Part shown: one piece after another, positions 9,720-63,013 of the stretch
Position numbering within the stretch: the stretch's first letter is position 1
Layout: each line of letters begins with the position of its first letter
DNA from: Paramyrothecium sp. XJ0827
Lineage: Eukaryota > Ascomycota > Sordariomycetes > Hypocreales > Stachybotryaceae
DNA length: 64,000 nt
Assembly: GCA_020881915.1 (NCBI GenBank)
Contig: JAJFPB010000004.1
Span: forward strand, 4,712,001-4,776,000
Direction: 5' to 3'
Notes under the pieces: generated by a model
What the model saw: the letters and a program-made list of their open reading frames with translations, nothing else
Told to the model about the DNA's origin: nothing
Databases searched by the model: none
Translations under genes and position numbers: made by a program

Positions 9720-11076
9720 CTACATCTGCCACTGCTTCAGCCACATAGCCATCCATTGGCTTCCAACAGGTTTAAGAAAGGCCAAAGTCTCGCTCTTGGA
9801 AGTAGTATTCTTGGTAGCAAGCGAGGGCATAACGGCACCGTCCAGGCCCTCACCATGGCTTGCTAACGACTCGAAGAAGTCGAGCAGTTTAAGGCCAGGG
9901 TTCAGGTCCAGGTTGGCGTCTTGGCCGGACCGCCGGAGAGCGTCTACCCAGTCCGCCCACGGGACAATGTGTTTTGCGTCGATCCGAAGGAGCTCGGAAA
10001 CCGTCGGGACTAAATCCGCCCAATTGATGGCTCTAGGATTCACGGCGTGGTAGATTCGAACATGGTCGTTGGCTGCAGTCGAGCTTTCATCAAATCCGGG
10101 TGTGAAATCAGGCTCCCCAGTCCTCTTATTGAGTTCAAATGCTCGAGACTTTGGAGTGTGTTCGATCACGTTGCTCAGCTCGAGAATGGCTTGTGAGAGG
10201 ATGTCCACAGGTACCCAATTCACCGAGTCCATAGATCCGAGGGTAGACGGAAGAAATCCAGTGTATTTTGAACTCGCGATAATCTTTCAGCAAGCACGAG
10301 CCGTCAGCTATATGGATCGCTGCGAAGGGTGCAAGAAGCAAAGCGCAACATACCGTGGGGAGCCATTCCTGCCTGTTCCATATGCCGTTCTCATTCATCA
10401 CAGGCCCTGCAATTTGCCCAACGCGACAAATCGCGGCTTTCTTATGCCGACTAGACCTCACGTGCTCCTCAATTATCAGCTCGCATACAAGCTTCGAAGC
10501 ACTGTAGCCGCCTAGATAGGGCGACAGGTCATAGTTTGGACGCTCGGCAACGGGTCCATCAGCCTGCACATGGCTGACGGTCCCAATCGTGGAGACAAAG
10601 AGGAAATCAACCTCCCTGGGGCTGTCAAGGCAGAAGTCTAGGAGGTGCCGCACGCCTCTGATGCTGGGTTCGAAGGATGAAAGGTCCCAATTGAAGTTGA
10701 CTGGCCACTGATTGTCTAAATGATAATTAGGTTACGCGAAATAGAGCAGGCATTGGTGTGTCTACTTACGGATGATGTGTGTGGTCTCCAAGAGGAGTTG
10801 GCCATACGTGTCCCGGTTCAAACCAAAGTAGGGCTGTGATAGATCAACTCGGAGGAAGTCGAGGCGATCATCGTCTAAGTTGGTGTGCAACCCTCGGGCC
10901 TTGTTGGCCTGTGCTTGCTTGGCACGGCCATTTTCAGCTCGATTTAGACAAATAACTTTGCCTACGTGACTTTGGTTCAACAGCGAGTCGAGTAAATATG
11001 AGCCCAATGATCCGGTGCTCCCGGTAAGAACTACCGTTGTGCTGGACGAATCCATTGCGTCGCTGGTTTGTGTCAT
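9720..11076 (-). CDS. Stand-alone thioester reductase-type NAD(P)-binding enzyme (3 exons)
   Basis: Exons 11076-10770, 10715-10354 and 10283-9720 join in phase to give 410 aa. The N-terminus has the nucleotide-binding loop GSTGSLGSYLL. The first splice rebuilds HNQWPVNFN, a hallmark of the male-sterility/thioester-reductase family (NAD_binding_4). The catalytic YSASK (YxxxK) follows. This fold forms the C-terminal R domain of many fungal adenylate-forming reductases and NRPSs, where it releases a carrier-bound acyl thioester as aldehyde or alcohol. Here it has its own ATG about 24 codons before the Rossmann loop and no adenylation or carrier domain in front. A free enzyme acting in trans is the likely reading. 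The nearest carrier domain is in the gene at 19086-22846, which lacks a reductase. That partnership is inference. Confidence 0.88.
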
Positions 11077-14000
11077 GTCTGAGATTACTGAAGTTTGGAC
11101 ATTCTCTAGATCCCTTCACAGCCGCTACCCTGCAGTTGATTTAAAGGAATGCCGGACGGCGGGCCAGTAATTTACAATACGGTGGTGGATACATTAGCTA
11201 CGGGGTTCTTTTTGAACCTGCCTCGGGGCACCTCTGACTTGCATTTCTGCATCAAAACCCTGCGATGCTCGAGCAGGATATGCCGGGACGAAGCCGTGGC
11301 AGCTCCATGCATGGCACTCACGTGAAGCGCCAGTTCATGCGGCCGAAGCCACCATTAAACTCTGGGCTGGTATGCCATGCTAACCCAGTTTTGGATCACA
11401 GGACAAAGCTACATAGTCATTAAAATCGTGGTGACTTGGAATTCACAGCGCCTCCATGGTAAGCTTACATTGTCGGGGCTCATTAGTAGAGTAGTGTTTT
11501 CGCTTGTAGAATCGAGCTGGAAACAGCAGTGTGGGTGGAGTTGACGCTTACTACGGGTCCAACAACTGATTGAACAATCTGTAAGCCGTAAGGCTGGTAA
11601 GAGGAGCTCCGTCACGACTCGCCCCCAAGATTTCTACGTCCTGATCGGGCGGACATTTGCGACGTGTGCCTCGACATGACGAGGGAGAATGCAGGAATGG
11701 CGGACGAGACAGCTGGAGAAGAACATGCTGAGCAGCGCTCGATCAGGGGCTACGTGCTAGGATTATGTTTAAACATTGCTACTAGCCACGCTCCTATTTG
11801 AGCACCATGTCAAACATGTGCAAGATCCTCTCGCTGTGTGAGGCTCATCGAGCTTGGGGGTTCAGCTCCCCATCACTTCAAGGATTGGGCAATGGCTTGT
11901 TGTGACAGCACGCAACACCATCACACAAGCCCAACCAGAGGTGCAGAAACTAGGAGGCACCTGACCTGGTCTGACCTACATGCGACGAATGGGGACGCTA
12001 AGGGCGAGTGGACCGGGTTATCCGGGAACGAGGCATACCGCCGTGGTGCTCTGTGGACAATGCTGGCACGACCTTGTTCAGAGTGCAGAGGGTAAGACGT
12101 CAGTGTTCGTCCTCGTCTCCTCGCGGCGCGGGCCCAACCAATACTCTCTGATGTGCGAGCGAAGAAGAAAAGTACACGTGTAACCGGTGAGGACGGGTTC
12201 GAGGAGCGGCTTGACGCCAATATCCTTGGCACCGCGCGCTGCTTTCAAGATGTTGTGACCCACTCCCGCTCACTCGGGGTCGATGGCTGCTGCCCTACGG
12301 TCGTAAACATTGGCAGGATAGGATAACGTTAGTGTGTGCTTGGCACCGTTCGCCGCCACAACTGCCCACGCCGCGGCGTCCATGGGGGCTGTGGAAGACC
12401 CTGACAGAGGCCCCTTGCAGTGCAGGTGGGCCCGGCTGGGATCCGCGTTGTGCGGATTGACTTGGGTATATTCCGAACGAGGCTTCTGCATGCCATGAGG
12501 GAGTCCAGGACCGGTCTGAGCGAGCTGTGGTCTATATGAGCGACCGGTCGAGGCCACGATTTCGCTTCTGCAAGGCCTTGCCGGCCAACAGCTCGGTAGC
12601 CCAGCGCGGGCCTCTCGGCGGATGGTTGAGATCGCGCAAGGATCAGGCTTAGCCAAAGATTGGCCCGAGCAGGGGGTAACGCGCAGGCGTTGAGTTGTGC
12701 CCCCGGGCAGCGATTCCTTCGGGGCAGCATCCGCCAGGCTGGAAATGACGGCCAAGGCGAAGAAGTTCGAATTGCCTGCGCTAAACACACATTCCGTTAA
12801 AGGCCTTTTCGTAGTAGAAAAAACCACCGGCTGCTCTGGGCAGATACAAATTGCTGGGGGGTAACAAAAGGTCCCAATCTAGCATTATAGCCAGTTCCTG
12901 TATGCCTTAGCGAATGACGAGAATGCACCCTCTTCTCAATCCGGAACAATTTGCCTAACCTTGCAGCTCTCGTTAGCTTCCTCAAGCATCGGACAATACC
13001 AGGGCCAGAACTGAGTGCTACGCTGCGCTCGCCTGCCGCGATTCCGGGCTGCGCTTCCAGCTCAGTTGCTGCCGATGCGTTTCATCCACGAAAGAATGCA
13101 TGAGAGTTGGTTCGAAGAGATGATGCTCATCATTAAACATTCCTTGGGAACTCATCACTTAAGTCGAGGCCATCTCGAGGCGATCCTCGTCTTGCTCTGT
13201 CTTGCCTACCGGTCCACGACAGACATACGTGCTCTGAGCGGACACAATGGCAGCGATCCGGCTGTCTTATAACCTCAACAATTGACGCTTACCGGCGGGT
13301 CGGTGAACATCCACAGCCACTCATTAACCTTAACTGTACAGATTTTCGGTACAGGAAAATTGTCCCGGCACATCGTCGGGGACCTTTGCCGTCATCCCGA
13401 TCACCCTGACCCGCGAGCCGATGGAACATTCTCAACGAAGCCCTGTGCTGATGAAACGATCTGTATTTAGAGCCGGACAGCATCTCCTGGGTCCTATCCG
13501 GACCCCACTGGGCGTACAGCCAGCATCCCAGACCGCAGCGCAGAATGTGATGTAATTGGTGAGAGCATGGCGGTAAGCATGGTTCAGCAACGGCAGCGTG
13601 GCTGAACATTACAGATTGCACCCTCTTCTTGCGAAATACGTAACGTATCGCGTACCCGGAACCCCGCTCGCCTCGCCCGAGTGTGGTAGCAGAGCGAGCT
13701 TGTGCCGTGGAAATGCATGGCTCTGGCCAACAGCAACAGCATGTTGGTAGGATAGGAATAAGCAGACGGACCTCGCCAGCGCCTCAGCCCGCGAGGCTCG
13801 ATCTCCTGCATTGTTGAAGATGAAGACTGTCCGGCCGCGAAGGCCTCTCGTGCCGCAGGACACAAGGCAAGCCAGGCAAGCGCCCAGCAAGTGTCAGACT
13901 GTGGCGACGAATAGTGCAGAATCCGCCGCGTGGGCGTCCGACAGAACCGCGACCGTGGATTCACTTCGCAGGCTAACGGAGAATAGACCCCTGTTACGGA

Positions 14001-14371: not shown

Positions 14372-15936
14372 ATGTTTGGGACGCTGAGCTACGATGCGCA
14401 GAACCAAGAACCCGTCTTTGAAGCAGTCAAGACATTGCCAAACTCAATCACCGGAGCGGAACCCAGTAAACGGGGCTCAACGATCCACAAGGCTTGCCAG
14501 CTTTGCCGCGCGCGCAAGGTAAGTGGTAAAGGCCCGGTGGCACTCTTATCACGGGTTACAGTCCAGAGCTATCTACACCGCTGTGCTCTTCTGATAAGCT
14601 GCCGCCCGTTCTTCTGCACAATTGCTGACCTGTTCTGCGGCATTCTAGCTGCGCTGCAGCGGAGAACCATCTGGCTGCGAGAGATGCAAATCATCCTTCA
14701 GCATTTGCAGATACCCGCCCAGATCGTCACGACCGAGCAGAAGGCGTGATCCCACTTCCCCACGCAATGCGAACTCCAAAAGCCACGGCCCCCTCGCTGA
14801 TGGATACTTTCCTCCGATAGAGGGAGATCATCTGCCGAAGGAGGCACAGCCTCACACTTTTCTCTGGCACGACCCCGTTGCAGCAGGCTCGAGCACCCAA
14901 GACCTCCAATCTCTGTCGGCATCCAGATTATCAGCTACCGGTCAAGGGGTCACATCCCCCCAGTCTCAATCATTCTTAGTTGATGACTACGTATTCAACG
15001 CCGACGATTACAACTTCAAGGATTATTTTGGCGTTCCTTGGAAAGCCCAAGACATTTTCGAATCCAAGGCGACGTCAAATTTGATCAGTACACCCAATCT
15101 GAGCCTCCAGTGTAAGAGCCTCCCCCCAATGCTTCGTCATACTGCCGTACTATCAACTCGATCGAGAATCGACTGACAAAGCGATTGTAGTACCCGGACC
15201 ACCTTATGAGAAAGCCTCCTCTCACGAAGAACCTGGATCAAATTGCACTACGCCAGATTTGGAAGCCTTAGATCTTGTTGGCACAGACGCAATGCTCGGG
15301 CGCGCATGGTCAGTTACGTCTGTGGAGAGAACCCCGGAGCTGTCTTCTCGCGCTTCTCTATCACGAAGTACTTCGGTCGAGACGATCGGAACATATCGAG
15401 ACATCCATCGGGGTGATCAGGGCCGTCCCGAAGGCAAAGAGAATTGCCACTGTCTAGGCCAAGTGGCCCACCTTCTTGAGGAAGTCGAGGCTGGAAATGC
15501 CAAGATGAACGCAAGCATGGATGAGCTCTTCGAATGCACAAAGGAGCCTCTGAGCCGACGAAAAGCACTCTTGGCTTGTGCAAGTTGTAATTCTAGGCCT
15601 GAGTTTACACTTATGCTTGCTATGCTAGCCAAGTCACTTAGTGCCGTATGCCATAGACTGGTTCAAAGCCACTTGCAGAGCCGAGTTGAAGAAGATGGCG
15701 GAGACACAACTGGCGTCGGATGGCCTGATCTAAGACTAGGCATGTACTCGATTCAAGACTCAATGGAAAGATTTACAGTCGTGGAGGCTTTGATTACAAC
15801 GAAGCTGAAATACTTGCTCGATTTCACCACGAGCTTAAAGACTTGGGCAGAGGGACGTGATGGGGTGCAAGTGTTTTTGGTACAGGCTGAGGAGAGGGCA
15901 AGAGAGCTTCAGACTCAGATTGATCAAAGGGTTTAG
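14372..15936 (+). CDS. AflR-like Zn2Cys6 transcription factor (3 exons)
   Basis: Exons 14372-14518, 14649-15111 and 15191-15936 join in phase to give 451 aa. The first splice completes a full zinc cluster: KACQLCRARK joins LRCSGEPSGCERC, followed by a final Cys before RYPPR, so all six cysteines are present. The C-terminal half has the HCLGQ.. and CxxC-containing helical layout of regulators resembling AflR of aflatoxin clusters, with the LLACASCNSRPEF segment at about residue 310. The intron placed inside the zinc cluster is typical. Proteins of this type usually activate the cluster they sit in. This gene lies between the reductase and the isocyanide synthase pair, so it is the best candidate for pathway control. 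Family: confident. Target genes: inferred from position. Confidence 0.88.
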
Positions 15937-16461: not shown

Positions 16462-17686
16462 CTAGTTCTTGGTGGCAACTGACTTCTCCCTGAAGTAGCT
16501 CGGTCGGCCATCTTCCTCAACAATTTCCATGTTCGGATCAGCTTCAAAGTCTCCTTTGATTCCGCTAATCCACTCGCCATCGGCCATCTGCGCGACACTG
16601 CAGTGCCATGGGGTTGTGTAACCTGTCTTGGTATTCAACAAGCTCAGGGAAAGTTTGTGTTCGCCAGTGGATTGGTGGATTGAGAGGCGAAGGTGGTTGG
16701 GGAATGCATTCTTGCATGCTCCTGTGAAAGCCTATCGTGATGTTAGCGACAGATTCCATATGCGAATATCTAACACAAAGGTCTTATGGGTGATGATCGA
16801 ATGGGACGAGGTATTACTCACATAACCGCGAGTTATCATCTCCTTAGCTAAGAACTTGACGTTCCTCTTATATGCGTTGTTGCTTCGTCCCTTGCCAGCA
16901 GGGAAGACGTGCTGCAGGTCTGACTCAAGAAATCGGCAGTATCCACGATAGGTCATGAGAGTGTCGGGCTTAGTAGCGATTTCGTGATCAATGTCAAGGT
17001 CTTCCTTTCCGTATTTGTTCAGAAGCCATCGTCGGAAATTGGTAGCGTTTGCAACATATGCAATCTCGTCCATCTTTTTGGGGAGAGCGAAGTCGACTAG
17101 ATCACGGACGTCGGAGAAGCCAATGTGCACGAAACCCTTCTCCACGGCCATTGTTCGTAGAGCCTGGTCATACGCCCAGACGTCCCTGTCTTGAATGCTC
17201 AACAAATCTACAAGCACAGATGATGTATCAGCATGATGCTCTTTGTATAATCACTCTAGGCAGTTCTGAGTAAGACATACCGTTGTAGACCAAGCCGTCA
17301 GAGATGATGGTGACTTTGGCACCCGGCTCATATATCTCACCAATTCGAATGCACATGGTGTTCAGACGCTCCAAAGCCAGCTCCTCGGCTTTGTCGGGCA
17401 AGGATCCGAGCACCTTCTGTACTTTGTTTGCTGATTTGAATGGGAAGGCTGGGAGGCCCATCTCAAGAGGTTTACTCTCGTTGACGTATTGGTCGATGAC
17501 TGAGAGGAACTTAGGGATGCCAGCCGCAAGTCTGTCCGCTGTGTCGTCAAACTTATTCAAAGCATAATCGAAGATGATGGCCAAGATCTGTGTCGATACA
17601 GGAGAATCGCCGACCAAAAGGCTGGCGTTGTTTTCGACAGCGATAGCATGGCTGTTGTTCTTTGGGATAGGATGAAGGACTTGCAT
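16462..17686 (-). CDS. Isocyanide synthase, PvcA/DIT1 family (3 exons)
   Basis: Exons 17686-17281, 17207-16822 and 16731-16462 join in phase to give 353 aa. The first splice rebuilds ISDGLVYNDLL. Further family blocks are HIGFSDVRDLVDF and TYRGYCRFLESDL. These are characteristic of the DIT1/PvcA (isocyanide synthase) family, whose characterised members turn an amino group of an amino acid into an isonitrile using ribulose-5-phosphate as carbon donor. Length matches free-standing bacterial and fungal synthases. As I recall, in CrmA of Aspergillus fumigatus this domain is fused to adenylation, carrier and transferase domains; here the protein ends after the synthase domain with a normal stop. 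It is divergently transcribed from the gene encoding exactly those other domains. No PvcB-like oxygenase partner is seen. Substrate amino acid: unknown. Confidence 0.92.
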
Positions 17687-19085
17687 TTTGGATGATGGGG
17701 CGGTTATTAATAAGGAGATGGCGTCGTGTGTGTGGTTAGCAGGAATTATGGTACAGGCTTTTTGTGTCGTGTCTTGTTGAGGAAAGAAAGGAGATGAGAT
17801 TTGGACGGGAACGAAGCCGTTCTAAATACTAATTCCACCCTGATAACTCGGGGTATCTCGAAAGTGAGGTTGAACTGACACATCTAAACATCTTGACGTG
17901 AGCCTTTGGAGAACTCCGACACTATTGTGACTGATCGACGAGGCGACTCTCATTGCAGCCACAGAGGTGGACAAGACCAATCCGGATGGTCCCTGCGTGA
18001 ACGCTGCCAAGCGAACCACGAGGGTCTGACACGAGCACAGGTGGGTGGACCCTGAACACCCGGCTGACGGCCACGGCTTCTCGGAAATAGAGGTTGCTTG
18101 ACTCAAGCTATTGATCCTTCCCCGATCGCCAAGGGTCGAATCTCCCCTCTCCCTTCCATGATTTCCACCTTCTGGAAACGGTCGGCAGTAAACTTGACGG
18201 CTGCAACCTGCATACTTGGATTCGGCTCATACTCGGGCCTGCTGAAAAGATTGCGGCCCGAATTGCCCTATCGGGACGAGGAGGGCGGCGTAAGGCGTTC
18301 AGCTAGGGTCCCCGTCCACAACCCAGGGGAAATGCAAAATGGCGTACCGCTATGACGTTTGAGATCGGAAAGCAGCCGTCTCGTCTGGCAATTGGAGCGC
18401 AAATCTGACTGAGTTGACCAGGTTCATCAGGCTACGAGCGACTGTCGAATAGTACTATACAGCTAGGACGACTGGGAAGGCTGTCCAATTAGCACTATAG
18501 AGTTGGGACTGACACAACATGAAAACCCAATCTGTGTTTTCTTGACCTCCGGTCCTCCGGGTGATTCTAGACGTTCTAGACCACGCTTGGCTGTGATATC
18601 AAGATTTTACACCATGCGCCCCACAATGCAGCTGCCTTGGTTATTACCGGTTCTAGGGCCCATCCATGCAATAAGCTAGGGCTGAGGTCCGTGAGTTGGC
18701 TGCCCAAGCCACGAGAGTTTCAGCCGTCAGACCTCCGGCGGACCTCCATCAGAAGCTGTTCTGGCACGTCCTCCGCTTCTCGGGGTGCGTCATCAGCAAG
18801 CCGCAGGATCTGATGGCGTGAGCCTCATGGAAATGCCGTTCCGATGGCATGTTGCCGAATGGGAGGGCAGTCTAGGAGGAGAATTCCTCCGCTCAGCATA
18901 TGCAAGTGGTCGTGAAAAGGCGCAAAATTTCAGGGCTTTTTGTAGCCACTTCGTCACTGCCTTGGTTTGTGGCTGGATTTCGCGCATGCCAGGAAAGCCA
19001 TATATCGGCTTTAACACCTCTCTTCTGCAATGTAACAGTCCTCCCAGACACATCCAAGTCATTCAACACCTGCTTGCAACAAGTG
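17687..19085. promoter_or_regulatory. Shared divergent promoter of the isocyanide synthase and NRPS-like genes
   Basis: The 1.4 kb between the two start codons (17686 on minus and 19086 on plus) contains no gene with recognisable features. A frame running into the NRPS-like gene from 18900 lacks similarity to the adenylation domain, so I start that gene at 19086. Two imperfect copies of a block of about 29 bases lie at 18442-18509 (separate entry). Co-expression of the two genes from this region is inferred from their arrangement. Confidence 0.6.
18442..18509. repeat. Imperfect direct repeat in the divergent promoter
   Basis: A block beginning CTGTCGAATAGTACTATA at 18442 recurs from 18481 as CTGTCCAATTAGCACTATA. 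Both copies continue through a similar GxTxGGAC ending. The two agree at roughly three quarters of positions and are spaced 39 bases apart. They could be regulator binding sites or a decayed duplication; sequence alone does not decide. Confidence 0.55.
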
Positions 19086-22000
19086 ATGGCTCCACCCATT
19101 GAATACGGCAGGAGGTTGATCCCGCAGATCCTCGACGACCTTGCTGCGACAGAACCGGATCGCCTCGTCTACTCTGTAGCGAAGTCAGCGGACATCTCAG
19201 AGGGGTTTTTGGAAGTGACTGCTCTTCAGTTCAAGCGGGCAATCGACAAGATTGCGTGGTGGTTGCACAAGGAAATTGGAGAGAAGCCAACAATAGAGCC
19301 ATTGGGCTATATCGGACCTCGTCAGTTTATGCTTCTCTTCAATCTCAGATGGGAGGCTCATGCTAAGTGCTACAATAGATGATCTTCGTCATGTCTTGTT
19401 GACTCATGCTGCTGTCAAAGCTGGGTACACTGTAAGTTAAACACGGAAGCATCACTGCTCCAGAGCCCGTAGCTCATGACTTGAACCAGACATTATTTCT
19501 CTCACCAAAGAACAGCACCGAGGGAGCATCAGCGGTCCTGGAATCATCAAAATGCAATGTATGGATTCAGCCCGGGGAGCAGGCTATGATCCACCTTGTC
19601 CAGGACTTCGTAGAAAAGAGATCCATGAAAGTTCTCCATCTCCCAGAGACCGCCGAGCTTCTTGATGCTGAAGGCACGGCGCCTTACCCGTACAACAAAA
19701 CCTTTGAGGAGGCTGCGCAGGACCCAATCTGCGTCCTCCACACATCCGGGTCCACGGGTTTGCCGAAGCCCTCGGTGTGGTCTCATGGTCTCTTGGGTAC
19801 CATGGATGCCGTGCGGCTTCTGCCACCAACAGAAGGCGACCTTGGACTCGCTCCATGGACAAAAGGTTGGGACGAGAAGAGCCGAATATACTCGTCATTC
19901 CCAATGAGTCATGTACGTGATCCCCGGATGAATGTGGATGTGCTTGCTAACAAGCTGCAACAGGGAGCCGGAGTTCTCATGGATATCATGATCCCCGCGC
20001 TCTTTGGTCTGCACTGCATTCTAGGACCTGCTGGCGTCATTCCCAATATGGGTCTTATTGAATCGCTCGCAGAGCATGGGAACATCGGTATTTGGAGCAT
20101 GGTTCCATCCTTAGTGGACGAGCTTGGCGAAACTCCAGACGTACTAGCAAAATTCACCTCCTCCAAGTTCATATGCGCATCTGGCGGTGAGTTTGCCTGC
20201 TGAATACATAATCCTCTACCTTGCTGATTCACGTGGTAGGTCCAACCAGTCCTACAAGTGCTGGGAAAGTCAACAAGGCCATCCGCGTACTGAACCTTAC
20301 TGGGACCACTGAGGGTCTCTTCATTGGCAACCTTTGGGTAGATAGAGAAGACTGGCGATGGTTTGCCTTTCACCCTTGGTCAGGTTTCGAGTTCCGTGAA
20401 GTTGAGCCAGGTGTGTATGAGCATTGGATCCGCCGCAACGAACATTGGGAACTCTTCCAAGGCATTTTCCACACTTTCCCTGACCAGGATGAGTACAACT
20501 TCAAGGATTTGTACATCAGACATCCGTCCAACCCGGATCTTTGGGCCTACAAAGGCAGAAGCGACGATGTCGTGGTTTTATCCAACGGGTACAAAATCGC
20601 CCCGCTGGACACTGAGGCCTATGTCTCTACGCATGCAGCGGTTAATGGCTGTCTTGTCGTAAGTAGCACTCCATTCCACGTTTTCGATGACCTTTGTCAG
20701 TGCTAACAGCATGTAGGTTGGTTCTGGACAGGTCCAGGCTGGACTTCTCATCGAGTTGAAAGATCCTTCAGCAAGAAACAATGAAGAAGTTGTCGACAGC
20801 ATTTGGGCCACGGTGCAGGAGACAAACAAGTCTTCTATGCACAAGAATCAATTTCATCGAGATTACATCATGTTCGCCGAAGAGGAAAAGCCCTTTGTGC
20901 GCACAGATAAGGGCACCGTCAAACGACGTGCGACACTGAACCTCTACCAAGATTACATCAAGCGTTTCTATGATACACAAGAGGATGACAATACCGACAA
21001 CAAGTTCATAATCGACGTTGATACTGGTTCACTGAAGTCTGTCACTAATGCAATCTCGCATATCATTAGCTCGATGTCGCCCAACTTCGAGAATGTTGCA
21101 CCAGATGCCGATCTTTTCAATCTCGGTATGGACTCCCTTCTCGTTTTCCGGGTGATCAGAACAGTCCGTCAGGTAGTCGGACTTCAAGAACAACTTGCAC
21201 CTCGGCATCTGTATGCGAATCCCACCATTGCTAAGTTCTCTTCGACCCTCACACAAATAATTGCCGGAGCGAAGAACGGAGAATCTGAGCTTGACGGCAA
21301 AGTGGCGAAGATGAAAGAGCTGCTCGAAAAGTACAGGTCGCGACAATCAGCTAAAATGAGCCCATTTGACCTTATCATGCCCAAGCTCTACGTGAAACTC
21401 CTATTCTGTCTGCCTTTGAAGGCCGGCGCTAGTTTCGAACAGGCATTTGGAGGTTTGCGGGAGGGTCTTGCTCGACTTTTCACATTGGTTCCCGGTCTCG
21501 ATGCGAAAGTGTCGCACTGCGCAGACGACAAAGACGGCGGTAACAAGAAGGGACAGGTGCAGCTGCTCTCGCCTAAGTCTTCACCTTCGTCGGGGGGGCC
21601 CAGGCAATTGGTCTACCGAGACCTATCAAAAACTTTGTCTTCATTCGAAGAATTGAAGAAGACTGGCTTTGTGGCATCTGCCTTCCAGAAAGATGAGCTC
21701 CTGTTGGAAGCTCCCTGGTTCCCGCCGCATCCGACTGACACTATGATGGCACAAGCCAACTTCGTAGAAGGGGGTTGTCTCCTTGCGATGGGTTTCCATC
21801 ACTCATGCTTTGACGGATCAGGTGTTGTAACAGTCATCCGGGCTTGGGCAGAGTGTTGCAGGTTCGTCCAGGGTGATGCTACGGCAACATGCGACTGGAT
21901 AGACCCAGAAAGTATGAACAGAAGCTTGCCTCAGGTCCTTTGGGAACAGGAAGGCCATGCACGGCCAGCCGAGGAAATCGATCCAGCCACTTGGGGGTTT

Positions 22001-22846
22001 TTAGGCTTTTCTGCGCAGCAAGGAGCTGTGAAGCCACGCGAATCGCTCATGGCTGAATCGGCTCTTCCTCAGGCGCCTGCGCTTCCTCCATCGCCGGTTC
22101 TTCCACCACCCAAGCCGGAACGGAGTTTGGAATCCCATATCTTTCGAATCTCTGGAGAAAATATGGAGAAGCTCAAACAGGAGGTGGCCGCGGACCCCGA
22201 GGCAAAGGGGCCTGTCACATCAAGCGACATGGTACAGGCCCTATTCTGGCGCGCCACGATCAGAGCGCGTTACGAAGTGGAAAAGGCGAAGACAGGCAAG
22301 CCAGCCGGACCGGACAAGGTCTCCATTTTGGAGTTGCCGATTGACTGTCGCCCTTTCTTCTCGCCTCTGCTGCCCTCATCGTACATGGGAAACCTAATCG
22401 TCGTGAGCCGCCCTAACATGCCAGTGGAGACACTGTGTGCACCTGAGACAAGCATTGGGCGCATAGCTTTGGCAATTCGTGAAGCGACAGGATGCGTGAG
22501 GCAACCCCTGGTCCACGATGCCTTTACGCTGTTGAAGACTGTGCCAGACTACTCGAAACTGAGCTACGCGTTTATGCGGCTACAAGGCATGCACATTATG
22601 ATTACCAACTTGATGCTATTCCCAACAAGCGAGGCAACATTCGGTGGCGATTTCTTCGCCGACAATGGACAGTCCTCTGCGGTGCGACTTCTTATGGACG
22701 GCTTCAACTCAGCCTTCCGCATGTACATCATTCTTCCGATGCGTGAGGATGGCGGCGTTGACCTCGTGTTCGTGACATATCCGGAAGAGTTAGAGAAGCT
22801 TATGGAGGATGAGGAGCTGGCAAAATACGCCAGTTATGTAGGCTGA
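19086..22846 (+). CDS. NRPS-like protein: adenylation, carrier and HxxxDG acyltransferase (6 exons)
   Basis: Exons 19086-19320, 19379-19431, 19490-19912, 19964-20186, 20240-20658 and 20717-22846 give 1160 aa. All introns are 51-58 nt. Residues 1 to about 530 form an adenylation domain: LHTSGSTGLPK (SGSTG near 181), then NLTGTTEG, YKGRSDDVVVLSNGYKI and an invariant-type Lys in a DKGTVKRR loop. A carrier domain follows with FNLGMDSLLV; the Ser near residue 592 would carry phosphopantetheine. From about 650 to the end lies a transferase-type domain with HHSCFDGSG (HxxxDG, near 811), as in BAHD/trichothecene-acetyltransferase-like proteins. There is no reductase or thioesterase. The likely role is to activate an acid or amino acid, hold it as a thioester and pass it to an acceptor hydroxyl or amine. 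It lacks only the isocyanide synthase domain to match CrmA, and that enzyme is the divergent neighbour. Substrate is unknown. Confidence 0.92.
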
Positions 22847-24792: not shown

Positions 24793-26163
24793 TCACCCCG
24801 AGCTTGCAAAAATCCCACCCCACCACAGCGTCCAGACGCATAATGGTATGGACGAATAAACGAGCAAGAAAACAACAAATAGGAACATCTCTAGGGTTCG
24901 GTGGTGAAGTTGCAAGGTTTGGGAGTGCCTCGGAGCAGTCTCCTTCGTCGTAAACCGACCAAGCTGAGGAACGTACTTGAAACTCATTCTGGATCCGCCA
25001 GATAATCCAGCTTTGCCGCTGATTATAGAATCATGCAGCATAGGTCGAAACCACTCCGTCACGAAGCGATCAAGAGCTGGAAAATTCTGTTGCAATATCG
25101 CCAATCCGCGAACAAGCCAACACTGTCCCTCAAAGCAAGTGCGAGCGTACCATCCAGGCCGTCCGATGCCCACTTCATCGCAGAATTTTGCCCCGTTCAG
25201 CCGTCGGCTACCAGCTGCGATGAATTGCGTAGAGATATTGAAGGGCGGGTAGTCTGTCAAGAACTCTATGAAGTTGTGAAGGACGATCTCTGAAGTCGTA
25301 GTGAGATGTAGCTCGTTTACCAACATGCTCTCCATGGTTGCTTTCGCTCTGGCGGTCGACTCAAAATGTCGATGGTCAGTAGCGAGCAGGTATCCGATGT
25401 ATCGCCATAGGGCGATGTAATCCGCAATTTCATCCTCGCGAGGATGGACGCCCATTTGTGGTAGCTGAAGCCACATGTGGTTACAACAAAAAGTGGCGAT
25501 CGAGTGGATCGAGTCCAATGAATTGATGGGGACGCCGAACTCTTCCAGGTTGAAGTACTCAGGATTGGCCTTGGCCAGCTTCATGATGCGGTTCCGAACT
25601 GCAGAATGGAGCAGTCGTACTCGAATTGTGGTTACGTGGCCGGCATCACCGGGACGGAGAGCTTCGATGGAATCTGTGACCTGGAGGATGAGCTGGAACG
25701 TAGACAGAAGCCGGCGGCGCAGGGTTCGCACAGAGAATCCCCCTGTTCGCACCAGGACTTCCACGACGCTGGGAGATGCCGTGTTCTCCCCCACAAACCC
25801 TTGGAGCGCGAAGCCCACAATGTTTGCGATGGCGTACCGATAGAAGAACTTCTGGCCACGTTCAAGCTGCTCCCAGTCGACCCAACCAGGCACAGTATGC
25901 ACTTCTCTCCAGAGATGTTGCAACACTGTATCCTGGCGATGATGTTCGCGTAAAAGCGTGTACAGATCAGCCACTCCATGATTCTTGTTCGCCGTGCCAC
26001 TCTGCCCGTCGGCAATCTCTTGGAGCTTTTCGATCGCATGGCTGCCTAGCTCATCGTACTCATATCGTAAGTGCTTCGTTTCTTCTTTGGAAAGATGTAG
26101 CTTCGTCCACGAGAATTCGTGGCCAGCGTATCGGAAGGTATTCTGTCCAGTTTGTTCAATCAT
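24793..26163 (-). CDS. MpaB-like ER-bound oxygenase (DUF2236/rubber-oxygenase type)
   Basis: This single-exon gene encodes 456 aa from the ATG at 26163. An extra four codons upstream begin with GTG and are not used. The central region has the layout of the MpaB/latex-clearing-protein family: a WREVHTVPGWVDW block, a long helical stretch, then GHVTTIRVRLLHSAVRNRI with conserved His and Arg residues, which in this family surround a haem. The last 60 residues contain a hydrophobic segment (LFVVFLLVYSSIPLCVWTLW) expected to anchor the protein in the ER. Characterised members cleave isoprenoid C=C bonds oxidatively; MpaB' acts on a farnesyl side chain in mycophenolic acid synthesis. It is divergently transcribed from the terpene synthase gene starting at 26827, so action on a terpenoid is a reasonable inference. 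Substrate is unproven. Confidence 0.85.
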   Translation of the reverse strand: MIEQTGQNTFRYAGHEFSWTKLHLSKEETKHLRYEYDELGSHAIEKLQEIADGQSGTANKNHGVADLYTLLREHHRQDTVLQHLWREVHTVPGWVDWEQLERGQKFFYRYAIANIVGFALQGFVGENTASPSVVEVLVRTGGFSVRTLRRRLLSTFQLILQVTDSIEALRPGDAGHVTTIRVRLLHSAVRNRIMKLAKANPEYFNLEEFGVPINSLDSIHSIATFCCNHMWLQLPQMGVHPREDEIADYIALWRYIGYLLATDHRHFESTARAKATMESMLVNELHLTTTSEIVLHNFIEFLTDYPPFNISTQFIAAGSRRLNGAKFCDEVGIGRPGWYARTCFEGQCWLVRGLAILQQNFPALDRFVTEWFRPMLHDSIISGKAGLSGGSRMSFKYVPQLGRFTTKETAPRHSQTLQLHHRTLEMFLFVVFLLVYSSIPLCVWTLWWGGIFASSG

Positions 26164-26826
26164 GGTGATGATCACTTATCTTTGGGAGAGGGAAATCCCC
26201 ATGTCGCGCACAACAAGTGTCTAGAACTTCGACTGCGAGCTAAAAGCTGTTCATAATTGAGATTCTCGCTCAGCAAACAAAGGTGCCACCCATCGGATCC
26301 TATCGCTTGGCATTACCTTTCGACAGTGGTCATGTGGGTTGCAAATAGGTATGTAATTCACAGAGGGTGGTCATGCTGCCTACGCTCGGGTCCTTATTTG
26401 ATCTGATTCATGATTGTCGTTAGGTTGTGAACACACCATCACTTCATTTATTGTGTTAACAATACTTGTATCGACAATACGTAAAAAGACCTCATGTTGG
26501 TCCTTGCACCTTAAACCTACATCTCGGCGTTATCAAACGTCTAATCCTCTGTCGACTTCTACGTTCACATGCCACAAACCGTTTGTCCCTCCATGCACTT
26601 GAGACATTAGTCCTGAAATTCCCAAAAAGCGCACACGTACTCTCTTGGCATAGGCTCCGTCCGCTATTGCCTCTAAGTCCGTCGTGGCTTTGTTACCCTC
26701 TTTGTGAATATTATTTCGTGCACAGTAACAGACTTCAGGGTCCGTACTTCGGAAAGAGTAGTCTGGGCCTGTCCTACTACAACATCAATCATCCCTCTAG
26801 AAGAGAGGGAGGAATTTTGCACCAAC
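26164..26826. promoter_or_regulatory. Divergent promoter of the oxygenase and terpene synthase genes
   Basis: The 660 bases between the two divergent start codons hold no convincing gene. Shared regulation of the oxygenase and terpene synthase is inferred from arrangement alone. No specific regulator site was identified. Confidence 0.45.
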
Positions 26827-59480: not shown

Positions 59481-60476
59481 AGGATTATCATCTCCTTATG
59501 AACTTCAAATGAGCCAAAGGTAAAGGCTCATTCGTGTTGGACAAAGAAAATCCGATGCCATGCGTTTTTGGGAATAATGATGCTTTGTCACGCTATATCT
59601 CTTCCTTTGTACGTGTTTCAAGTTGAAGACCCTTTCATCACTCCCGGGAAGGGCAGTTTAGTGCTTAGCAGCTCGCCCGCCCTGATATTTACGTTGACAG
59701 TAGGTACAGTACACCCGGACCAGCATGATAGGAATGGCCTATCTTTTTTATTGAACCAGAATCCATTCAGCCTTTAAATGAACAGCTAGTCGGTGTTTAA
59801 TGCCTTTGAGGACAACATAATCCATTGTGGTGAAGGTTTAGTACTGTTGCACATTGTTCATGATGGCCAGGAGGGGATTGTCGAAGGCACTAGATTTATT
59901 TATATCCAGTGACTTTATCTATGAAAGAAATTCTTCGGCCTCTTGCCCATACATTATCTGGGGGATTGTGGATTTCTCACTCAAGAGAAGGTCTTTGTTG
60001 CCTGGCCTGAGCGCCTCAGAATGTGTTCGCGGGCTATTTGCGCCCAGCAGTCTCGAACTACTGGCACGGACTCTGCCTAAGGCTTTTGATCACATCACAT
60101 TCAAATACTCTTTGTTGAACTACGCCGTCTTTCAGTCCCATTTGATGTGCGATCAAAGTGCACAGCTGAACATTAATTTTTCACGGCCCTGCAGTGCTGT
60201 ACCCACTCTGAACCAATCAAGAACTATCAACTATTATTGACTGCCGTACTGTACAGGCTGTGTGGGAAACGGGTTCATGCAGTAGTCCATGGCTTTTGTT
60301 ACACCAAGACGTGAATCGGTACCTGTTTGTCAAAAGTGCGTGTGATTCACTTGCGGGAACGGTGAATGGCTGAGCCGCCCTTTTTCCGCCATGACCATCC
60401 TTCATTCGACAAGCAATTTGACGTTCTTCCTTGATCCAGCAAGCCCGTGGACATCGTTGGCAATGATCAATTGAAC
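59481..60476. other. Intergenic region before the helicase gene
   Basis: One kilobase with only weak frames (for example 59854-60240, no domain). The frame of the helicase is open about 30 bases before its ATG, without another ATG. Confidence 0.45.
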
Positions 60477-63013
60477 ATGTCATCGAGACGCAAGGTTTCT
60501 GAACCTAGGAGCAGCTCTTCTCGGGCTCCCCTAGCTCCATCAAAAACTGGCTCAGGGTCCGTGATACCTCGAGGAGCAAACGCGCCAACCATCGACCTTC
60601 CAGGCACCCTTGACAGCGATCCTAGGGACGGCTTGACGAAGACACAGCTTAGAAGGGAGAAAAATCTTGAGCAAGGTGCCAACGCATTCATCGGCTCCTG
60701 GGACGTGTCAAGCAGACGTTTTCGGGACGACAAACGACGTTCCAGACGCAGCACTTTCTCTCGGTACTTTGGCGAACACGACTTCTCCTACCTTGAGCTC
60801 AAGCCAGACCACAACAGTCGTCCTCTTTGGATAGATCCTTCCAAGGGCATCATTATCCTCGAGCGTTTTAGTTCACTGGCGGATCAAGCGACCGATTTCC
60901 TCACGACCATCGCCGAGCCCCGGTCCAGACCAACGTTCCTCCACGAGTATGCCCTGACAGCACACAGTCTTTACGCCGCAGTTGCTGTAGGGCTGGGGCC
61001 GCAAGATATCATCGACACCCTTGACCGATTCCTTAAAACCGCTCTTCCGTCGAGAATTCGAGATTTCATCCTCTCGTGTGCTAAGGACTACGGCAAGGTC
61101 AAGCTCGTCCTGAAGAACAACAAGTACTTCGTCGAAAGCACCGATGCGGAGATCTTACAGAGGCTTCTCAAGGATCAAATCATTGGTAAATGCCGTGTTC
61201 AAGATTCAGAAGAAATCGTGACGGTAGACAGTCTCCAAAACACTGCACTCGTCATTCCCGGTACGCAGGATGCAGCAGGACTTCGGCAAGCTCAATTGCT
61301 GTCCAAGCCAGAGTCGTCAGAGGCTCTAGAGCGAGACCCAAAGGACAATTTGCGTCTTTCCTTAGATGCTGAAGATGAAGATGACAGAATGAGCTTTGTC
61401 CATGCCTTTCAGGTCGCGGATGACTGTATCGAGGAAGTGCAGAGGAGGTGTCTCGAATTGTCTTATCCGCTGCTTGAGGAATACGATTTCCGCTTTGACA
61501 ACGCCAACGCGAGGCTTGACATAGATTTGCGACCCAACACACAAATCCGACCTTACCAAGAGAAGAGCCTCAGTAAGATGTTTGGCAATGGGCGAGCAAA
61601 GAGCGGAATCATTGTGCTACCGTGCGGTGCGGGTAAAACCTTGGTCGGCATCACAGCGGCGTGCACGATCAAGAAGAGTGTGATCGTTTTATGCACAAGC
61701 TCTGTCTCCGCGATCCAATGGCGCAACGAGTTTCTGAAATGGTCAAACATCAGCCCAGACAGTATCGCCACCTTCACTGCAGAGAGCAAGACCAAGTTTT
61801 CGGGCAGCACTGGCATTATCGTGACGACATACTCTATGGTTACGAACACCCGAGAACGCGCGCACGATTCTTTGGAAATGATGAAGTTTCTTCAAAGTCG
61901 CGAATGGGGCCTCATGCTGCTCGATGAGGTGCACGTTGTGCCTGCTGAGATGTTCAGGAGGGTCATCTCTTCCATCAAGTCACATTCAAAACTGGGGCTG
62001 ACTGCAACCTTGCTTCGCGAGGACGACAAGATCTCGCACCTGAACTTTTTGATTGGGCCGAAGCTTTACGAGGCAAACTGGATGGAGTTGTCTCAGCAGG
62101 GCCACATCGCAAAAGTTCAATGCGCTGAAGTATGGTGTCCCATGCCAAGCGAGTTCTATGAGGAGTATCTGCGGGTTTCTTCTCGACTCAAGCGGACGTT
62201 ATGCGCTGTGAACCCTGGAAAATTCCAAGCCTGCCAATATCTAATTGAGCATCACGAGGCACGAGGGGACAAGATCATCGTCTTTTCGGATGATCTGTAC
62301 TCCCTCAAGACGTATGCCCGAACGCTTGGGAAGGCCTTCATCCACGGCGCTACCGGCCAGGAAGAAAGGCTACGGGTGCTCGAGAATTTTCAGCACAATC
62401 CTCACGTCAATACATTGTTCCTTTCCAAGATTGGCGACACCTCTTTAGACCTGCCAGAGGCGACGTGCTTGATCCAAATATCCTCACACTTCGGCTCCCG
62501 CCGCCAAGAAGCTCAGCGACTCGGTCGCATCTTGCGGGCAAAACGCAGAAACGATGAAGGCTTCAACGCATTCTTCTATTCTTTGGTGACAAAGGATACC
62601 CTGGAAATGTTTTATTCGTCCAAGCGCCAAGCATTTCTTGTGGACCAAGGTTATGCATTCAAGGTGATCACCAAGCTGGCTGGTCTCGACCAATTACCGG
62701 GCCTTGCTTTGCGACACCCAAAGAGAGGCGAGAACTGCTTCAGACCACTTTGGTTGACAACGAAAAGACCGTAGAGGAAGATGTCACGGCTGATGGTCTG
62801 TTTGTGGGTAAGGACGGTAATTCACATCGTCGAGCATCAGGGCAGGTGAAAAGAAAGGCAGGGAGGCTCGGGGAACTGAGCGGGGCCCAAGACATGGCTT
62901 ACCTTGAGCGTGATAAGCCATCTGGCGGCAGGTCAGGAAAGAAGAAGGTAGAGTCAAACGCTTTCTTCAGGACCATCGCAAATGACGCCAAGCGACGAAA
63001 GAGACATGGGTAG
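60477..63013 (+). CDS. XPB/Ssl2-type DNA helicase copy with C-terminal frameshift
   Basis: From the ATG at 60477 an intronless frame runs 765 codons to a stop at 62774. It contains the XPB damage-recognition-like region ([20 protein letters not shown]), Walker A ([10 protein letters not shown]), the DEVH box ([10 protein letters not shown]), the SxT motif ([11 protein letters not shown]) and motif VI ([11 protein letters not shown]). XPB is the TFIIH translocase for transcription initiation and nucleotide excision repair. After [10 protein letters not shown] the reading shifts. The expected ERRELLQ and the terminal block [20 protein letters not shown] continue in another frame to 63013. A missing base near 62721-62724 explains this. 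The intron-free structure and sequence drift suggest a second, possibly decaying copy rather than the essential gene; a sequencing error is the alternative. Confidence 0.9.

What the first reader, a model, noticed from the sequence alone, without database searches (positions are those of the whole stretch)
16462..22846. CrmA-type isocyanide machinery split into two divergent genes
A free-standing isocyanide synthase (353 aa) and an adenylation-carrier-acyltransferase protein (1160 aa) sit head to head across 1.4 kb. From established knowledge as I recall it, the Aspergillus fumigatus crm cluster carries isocyanide synthase, adenylation, carrier and transferase regions in one fused protein. Here both parts are intact with their own starts, stops and introns. 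This could be an ancestral unfused state, a fission, or an unfused pathway whose product differs. Directly seen: motifs, splice joins, orientation. Inferred: joint function.
Basis: partly seen in the sequence, partly recalled or inferred. Interest (0 to 1): 0.9.

Follow-up and report, generated by a model that had tools for sequence, protein, structure and literature searches.

The report
Never-fused two-gene isocyanide synthase pair
A fungus keeps as two neighbouring genes an isocyanide-making enzyme set that other fungi carry as one fused protein; family trees suggest the two-gene form is the older one and that fusion happened at least twice.

Summary
A 353-aa isocyanide synthase (17686-16462, minus) and a 1160-aa adenylation-carrier-acyltransferase protein (19086-22846, plus) lie head to head across 1.4 kb, both intact. 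The genome also has a fused CrmA on another contig, so the pair is a paralogue, not a broken CrmA. Trees of each half put the pair outside the main fused clade, with Paramyrothecium foliicola; rooted on monodomain synthases, the synthase tree is unfused at its base, and neither protein keeps a linker remnant. This favours a never-fused state over fission.

The core idea is in print: Nickles 2023 described a split pair in a Fusarium-specific cluster family and proposed later fusion. Added here: split pairs also occur in Lecanoromycetes, Dothideomycetes, Leotiomycetes and other Sordariomycetes, and fusion happened at least twice. A second fused group (4 gene-model records; the 3 named are Sordariales) sits beside the window's lineage in both trees; one origin is rejected (AU p=0.001 for the synthase without P0139, 0.028 with it; 7e-48 for the NRPS-like half). 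Joint function, product and copper control remain inferred.

The parts
16462..17686 (-). Free-standing isocyanide synthase gene, 353 aa; exons 17686-17281, 17207-16822, 16731-16462
   Evidence: spliced translation; PF05141 E 1.2e-100; PDB PvcA 3e59 E 1.5e-37
17687..19085 (.). Shared divergent intergenic region, probably a bidirectional promoter; no Mac1-type copper site found
   Evidence: promoter role inferred
19086..22846 (+). Adenylation-carrier-acyltransferase (NRPS-like) gene, 1160 aa; exons 19086-19320, 19379-19431, 19490-19912, 19964-20186, 20240-20658, 20717-22846
   Evidence: spliced translation; Pfam domains; motifs
14372..15936 (+). Probable Zn2Cys6-type transcription factor gene, convergent with the synthase gene; possible regulator, membership of the cluster untested
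   Evidence: cysteine motif read by eye; no Pfam hit for the three pieces tested

Best explanation
The pair is a two-gene isocyanide pathway of an old, never-fused type. Inferred chemistry: the synthase turns an amino acid (valine, if like CrmA) into an alpha-isocyano acid, which is released (the carbon donor, a pentose phosphate in bacterial synthases, is recalled). The separate NRPS-like protein then adenylates that acid, holds it on its carrier serine, and its C-terminal acyltransferase esterifies it to an alcohol (a polyol such as mannitol, or another acceptor). Shown here: intact genes, domains and motifs, position in trees, lack of linker remnants, coexistence with a fused CrmA, and at least two separate fused clades elsewhere. 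Inferred: that the two work together, the substrate, the acceptor, the regulation.
For: ICS tree rooted on the genome's own monodomain synthases: the fused label needs 3 changes or 2 (P0139 left out), no bootstrap tree has one, and the base is unfused. NRPS-like tree: main fused clade 99/93, window in a 7-row group (100/100) elsewhere; 2 changes, one origin in 0% of 200 bootstrap trees. One origin of fusion rejected: ICS p-AU 0.0282 with P0139, 0.00142 without it, 0.00099 with all four second-group rows and without P0139; NRPS-like p 6.65e-48 with two of the four second-group rows. The window ICS ends 6 residues after its last conserved motif and the NRPS-like protein starts 6 residues before its first; fused linkers are 60-109 residues (28 of 55 fused measured). 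46 of 48 unfused NRPS-like proteins measured start 12 residues or fewer before that motif. 20 of 65 unfused NRPS-like records share an exact longest-contig length with an unfused synthase record (60 of the 120 listed synthase rows used), several with consecutive locus tags. The adenylation pocket stretch is 74-80% identical to the two fused CrmA rows compared while the transferase is 47%, which fits the same kind of acid.
Against: No expression or product data for this organism. Unfused synthases often have longer tails than the window's 6 residues (median 32 of 106 measured), so a short tail is not a rule of the type. No Mac1 consensus in the shared promoter, so copper control as in CrmA is not supported; but 1.5 kb upstream of the genome's own fused CrmA lacks the full consensus too, so the test says little. 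Deep branches of the ICS tree are poorly resolved. The NRPS-like outgroups are very long, so the root rests on the synthase half. Four unfused synthase rows lay inside the main fused clade and were dropped as suspected gene-model fragments; only P0116 shows a long trailing piece (182 residues), and real fissions there are not excluded.
Confidence: 0.7

Rival explanations
1. Fission: an ancestral fused CrmA broke into two genes and one half inverted.
For: The fused form is widespread (55 of the 120 NRPS-like records listed), and one genome can hold both forms.
Against: Window pair lies outside the main fused clade in both trees; no linker remnant; the genome's own fused CrmA is a separate locus; unfused rows at the base of the rooted synthase tree.
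Confidence: 0.1
2. Two unrelated neighbours: the synthase feeds some other enzyme and the NRPS-like protein acts on another acid.
For: No expression data; no alcohol acetyltransferase or Ctr copper transporter (crmB, crmD type) among the 29 ORF pieces scanned; an MFS-like gene lies about 8.5 kb from the synthase gene.
Against: The two partners share a contig in 20 of 65 unfused NRPS-like records, the two halves are fused in two separate clades, and in F. oxysporum homologous neighbours are reported as joint Mac1 targets (PMC11563359).
Confidence: 0.1
3. The pair works together but with another amino acid or alcohol than CrmA, giving a different isonitrile.
For: Transferase only 47% identical to the two CrmA rows compared, against 66% to an unfused relative (P0122) and 85% to P. 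foliicola; it coexists with fused CrmA in the same genome, so a redundant product would be odd.
Against: The adenylation pocket stretch is 74-80% identical to the fused rows, so the acid is probably the same kind; the transferase of another unfused protein, P0169, is hardly closer (50%) than the fused ones.
Confidence: 0.35

Closest known systems
CrmA (ICS-NRPS-like), Aspergillus fumigatus and others
   Same: Same domain order when the two proteins are laid end to end: synthase, adenylation, carrier, acyltransferase; 62% (ICS) and 53% (NRPS-like) identity to the A. fumigatus record P0205
   Different: One polypeptide with a linker (60-109 residues in the fused rows measured); separate clade; copper-regulated in A. 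fumigatus (PMC9381783); the window pair is two genes and its regulation is unknown
GCF 8 of Nickles 2023 (Fusarium monodomain ICS beside a separate NRPS)
   Same: Monodomain synthase next to a separate crm-type NRPS gene; synthase the closest relative of crm (PMC10153163, section 20)
   Different: Called Fusarium-specific; most of the ICS clusters with both an NRPS-like gene and a terpene synthase belong to it (section 21). Here the nearest proteins are from Stachybotryaceae, and no terpene synthase was found among the 29 ORF pieces scanned
F. oxysporum crm cluster (FOXG_09769-09773)
   Same: FOXG_09770 is an unfused 1209-aa NRPS-like protein (P0169) beside the gene called crmA; that crmA is then synthase-only is my inference, the paper calls it ICS-NRPS-like
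   Different: Another unfused clade in the NRPS-like tree; with crmB, crmC and a hydrolase; Mac1 targets (PMC11563359)
PvcA-type isonitrile synthases (PDB 3e59, 9dh4)
   Same: Synthase family by sequence (E 1.5e-37 and 2.1e-35)
   Different: Entries named PvcA and L-tyrosine/L-tryptophan isonitrile synthase; bacterial origin and lack of a linked adenylation-transferase protein are recalled

Membership tests
CrmA / crm cluster family | PF05141 isocyanide synthase | tested here: met
   E 1.2e-100
CrmA / crm cluster family | AMP-binding, carrier and PF02458 transferase domains in that order | tested here: met
CrmA / crm cluster family | All domains in one polypeptide | tested here: not met
   two genes on opposite strands
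CrmA / crm cluster family | Position inside the main fused CrmA clade | tested here: not met
   it is a relative outside that clade
CrmA / crm cluster family | Copper-starvation regulation (Mac1/MacA site) | tested here: inconclusive
   0 full-consensus sites and 0 TGCTCA cores in 1399 bases, 0.28 full sites expected from the window's density; the genome's own fused CrmA has one core and no full site in 1.5 kb, so the test has little power; expression not testable
CrmA / crm cluster family | Valine isocyanide and its mannitol esters as products | not testable with these tools
   no product data
Nickles GCF 8 (Fusarium type) | Monodomain ICS beside a separate crm-type NRPS-like gene | tested here: met
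Nickles GCF 8 (Fusarium type) | Terpene synthase in the cluster (reported for many members) | tested here: inconclusive
   none among 29 ORF pieces scanned; spliced genes with short exons may be missed; the genome search with PF01397 rang in no genome, its 14 controls included
Nickles GCF 8 (Fusarium type) | Fusarium host | tested here: not met
   nearest proteins are from Paramyrothecium foliicola, Stachybotryaceae; the organism itself is unnamed

The most novel reading that the evidence does not exclude
The two-gene arrangement is the ancestral way fungi made isocyano-acyl esters, working in trans; fusion evolved convergently at least twice (main CrmA clade and a second group whose named members are Sordariales), perhaps three times (Lojkania P0139); and the window pair runs beside a fused CrmA in the same cell to make a different isonitrile ester under different control.
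Probability: 0.27. Interest if true: 0.6.

Novelty: new member of a known kind. Interest (0 to 1): 0.42.

Why it matters
It gives a natural unfused counterpart of CrmA in a genome that also has fused CrmA, so the effect of fusion on product and efficiency can be tested side by side. Repeated fusion of the same two enzymes in separate clades is good genomic evidence that they act together, and suggests that tethering the synthase to the loading enzyme can be selected (inference).

Tried and rejected
Fission of CrmA: disfavoured on trees and missing linker remnants. Chance ORFs: rejected. Copper control by a Mac1 site in the shared promoter: not supported, but the genome's own fused CrmA also lacked the full site, so the test is weak. 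Lojkania P0139 as a third fusion: separate in the synthase tree, but not rejected as part of the main clade (AU p 0.447) and joined weakly to it in the NRPS-like tree (81/38). Terpene synthase search with PF01397 was uninformative, since no control genome rang. Papers on fusadapamides (PMC12751119, outline and abstract plus one passage) and Pseudogymnoascus copper stress (PMC12113139, passages) were opened as leads; the parts seen hold nothing on the split pair. Structure prediction was not run: it would not decide between the explanations. Orientation of the pair in other fungi was not read, because the collections offered for DNA hold no fungal genomes beyond the window's own.

Rows dropped: the 120 + 120 listed proteins were the best of 664 and 601. 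Identity clustering and a length floor cut 176 synthase candidates to 85 (91 rows with the window and own-genome rows) and 120 NRPS-like candidates to 54 (58 rows with window, own and outgroup rows). One search dropped 2 far outgroups, 4 unfused and 1 fused suspected fragments and 30 near relatives, and added 1. One search dropped 3 own or outgroup rows, 2 suspected fragments (P0195, P0214) and 12 others, the A. fumigatus row P0205 among them, and added 7. One search dropped 6 and added 2; one search dropped 3 (P0139 among them) and added 2. With the suspected fragments in, needed 7 changes of label and needed 3.

Full report
What is there. The window lies on contig C10 of an unnamed 51.8 Mb, 15-contig genome. 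The synthase gene reads 17686 to 16462 on the minus strand in three exons (353 aa). The NRPS-like gene reads 19086 to 22846 on the plus strand in six exons (1160 aa) once a fifth, 51-base GT-AG intron at 19913-19963 is removed. Pfam finds DIT1_PvcA in the first protein, and AMP-binding, AMP-binding_C_3, PP-binding, TRI-like_N and Transferase in the second. Core adenylation motifs, the carrier LGMDSL and the HXXXD acyltransferase motif are intact.

Relatives. The synthase is 90% identical to a Paramyrothecium foliicola protein and the NRPS-like protein 87% to another on a contig of the same length, so the fungus is probably a member of Stachybotryaceae (inference). Of the 120 best NRPS-like matches listed (601 found), 55 also carry the synthase domain and 65 do not. 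Two of the 65, P0195 and P0214, begin with 118 and 102 residues before the first motif and are probably pieces of fused genes. Twenty of the 65 share the exact longest-contig length with an unfused synthase record (using 60 of the 120 listed synthase rows); the names printed agree in organism. Where locus tags are visible several are consecutive, for example MMC26_002878 and 002879 in Xylographa, FDECE_103 and 102 in Fusarium decemcellulare, and NX059_005571 and 005570 in Plenodomus; in F. xylarioides they are six apart (H9Q69_003536 and 003542). The paired organisms include Lecanoromycetes (Xylographa; Teloschistaceae, genus lineage), Dothideomycetes (Clathrospora), Leotiomycetes (Oidiodendron) and Sordariomycetes (Paramyrothecium); other placements are recalled.

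The same genome. PF05141 rings at six loci (16 exon matches). One, on C13, is a complete fused CrmA: a P. foliicola crmA protein aligns over its whole length in three consecutive pieces at 79-89% identity, and it is 53% identical to residues 237-1159 of the window's NRPS-like protein. P. foliicola, Cylindrodendrum hubeiense and Clathrospora elynae also have both a fused and an unfused form in the lists. The pair is therefore not a damaged CrmA.

Trees. Careful trees (IQ-TREE, LG+C20) were built for each half. NRPS-like: the main fused group is one clade (99/93, 13 rows) that includes P. foliicola CrmA; the A. fumigatus record P0205 fell in it in the earlier quick tree. The window sits apart, with P. 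foliicola (100/100), near Cylindrodendrum and Ilyonectria unfused proteins. Synthase: rooted on two monodomain synthases of the same genome, the base is unfused, the main fused clade is nested (96/89, 96/86), and the window again sits with P. foliicola (100/100). A second fused group, P0143 (metagenomic), P0240 (Rhypophila), P0241 (Apodospora) and P0242 (Naviculisporaceae), groups with the window's lineage in both trees (NRPS-like 95/89; synthase 89/98). The named members are Sordariales (P0242 by its family name). They are the four best matches to P0143 (itself included; 120 of 277 listed). Their linkers resemble each other just before the adenylation domain (STASNEYG in three, TASSDYG in P0143) and not the CrmA linkers (by eye).

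Tests of one origin. Holding all fused synthase rows together: p-AU 0.0282 with P0139, 0.00142 without it; 0.00099, 59.8 log units, with all four second-group rows and without P0139. NRPS-like: 232 log units, p 6.65e-48, with two of the four second-group rows and P0139. The groups were noticed on the trees before testing, which the p-values do not allow for. The four records are gene models; transcripts were not seen.

Linkers. The window ICS ends 6 residues after its last conserved motif and the NRPS-like protein starts 6 before its first. In 28 of 55 fused proteins measured the linker is 60-109 residues. In 48 unfused NRPS-like proteins measured the start is 12 residues or fewer except in P0195 and P0214. 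Unfused synthases vary more: the median tail is 32 of 106 measured, the longest 221.

Against the reading. The synthase tree has many open forks. NRPS-like outgroups are too long to root that tree well. In the quick synthase tree, with suspected gene-model fragments left in, seven changes of label were needed; at least P0051 and P0119 could be true fissions. P0139 is ambiguous. No Mac1 site of the form given in PMC11563359 occurs in the shared promoter, where 0.28 would be expected from the window's density; the genome's own fused CrmA has one TGCTCA core and no full site in 1.5 kb, so the test has little power.

How it probably works. From Won 2022 (PMC9381783, sections 6 and 13 read, other passages seen by search): CrmA makes valine isocyanide and contributes to its mannitol esters, and the authors leave the acyl transferase open. 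By domain logic the adenylation-carrier-transferase part is a natural candidate to activate the isocyano acid and esterify it (inference). The adenylation pocket stretch is 74-80% identical to two fused rows against 47% for the transferase, which suggests the same kind of acid and possibly another acceptor; the stretch is a proxy, no specificity code was derived, and the transferase of unfused P0169 is only 50% identical.

What is known. Nickles 2023 (preprint PMC10153163; abstract and sections 20 and 21 read in full, other passages by search) reports the Fusarium-specific GCF 8 with a monodomain synthase beside a separate NRPS gene, and proposes that separate genes fused; it also calls crm the only ICS-NRPS-like example. 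The journal version could not be read. In PMC11563359 (section 7 read, passages elsewhere) F. oxysporum FOXG_09770 and crmA are Mac1-bound and induced in low copper, though excluded from the main list for variability; FOXG_09770 is an unfused NRPS-like protein here (P0169). Lim 2018 (PMC5974471) was seen in passages only. Searches for the fusion question, for Paramyrothecium isocyanides and for ICS-NRPS (with 8, 9, 27, 28, 39), judged by their listings, showed no paper describing a second fusion; the library holds only open-licence papers.

Verdict. The finding is real and well read by the first stage, but its core idea is already in print for Fusarium. The added points, a wider range, coexistence with fused CrmA and a second independent fusion, are of moderate interest.

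Noticed in passing
L025 3598-5514 (C10:129597-131513): A crm-type adenylation domain alone (40-58% identical to the window protein in pieces); the frame meets stops right after the domain, so it is a truncated copy or a stand-alone adenylation protein.
   Followed up: partly
window 9723-11115 (-): Reductase-type protein (NAD_binding_4, as in the end domain of NRPS-like reductases) with what looks like its own start; no adenylation domain recognised in the pieces seen.
   Followed up: partly
window 24796-26175 (-): MpaB/rubber-oxygenase-type protein (PF09995) about 2 kb past the NRPS-like gene; cluster membership unknown.
   Followed up: no
L023, L024 (C10:931000-940900 and C10:3892000-3901900): Two further synthases, apparently monodomain, in the same genome, 46-58% identical to the window synthase in pieces; partners not examined.
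   Followed up: no
P0243, P0244, P0248, P0266: Fused CrmA-type proteins with an extra MFS transporter domain, probably the transporter variant mentioned by Won 2022.
   Followed up: no
P0022, P0023, P0029, P0042, P0053, P0054, P0068: Unfused synthases that carry an ABC_trans_N Pfam match (PF14510), several from lichen fungi and one from Fusarium; may be gene-model joins or a real extra domain.
   Followed up: no
window 60435-62774 (+): XPB/RAD25-like helicase (PF16203 E 2.4e-112) as a single open frame; whether the genome has another copy was not checked.
   Followed up: no
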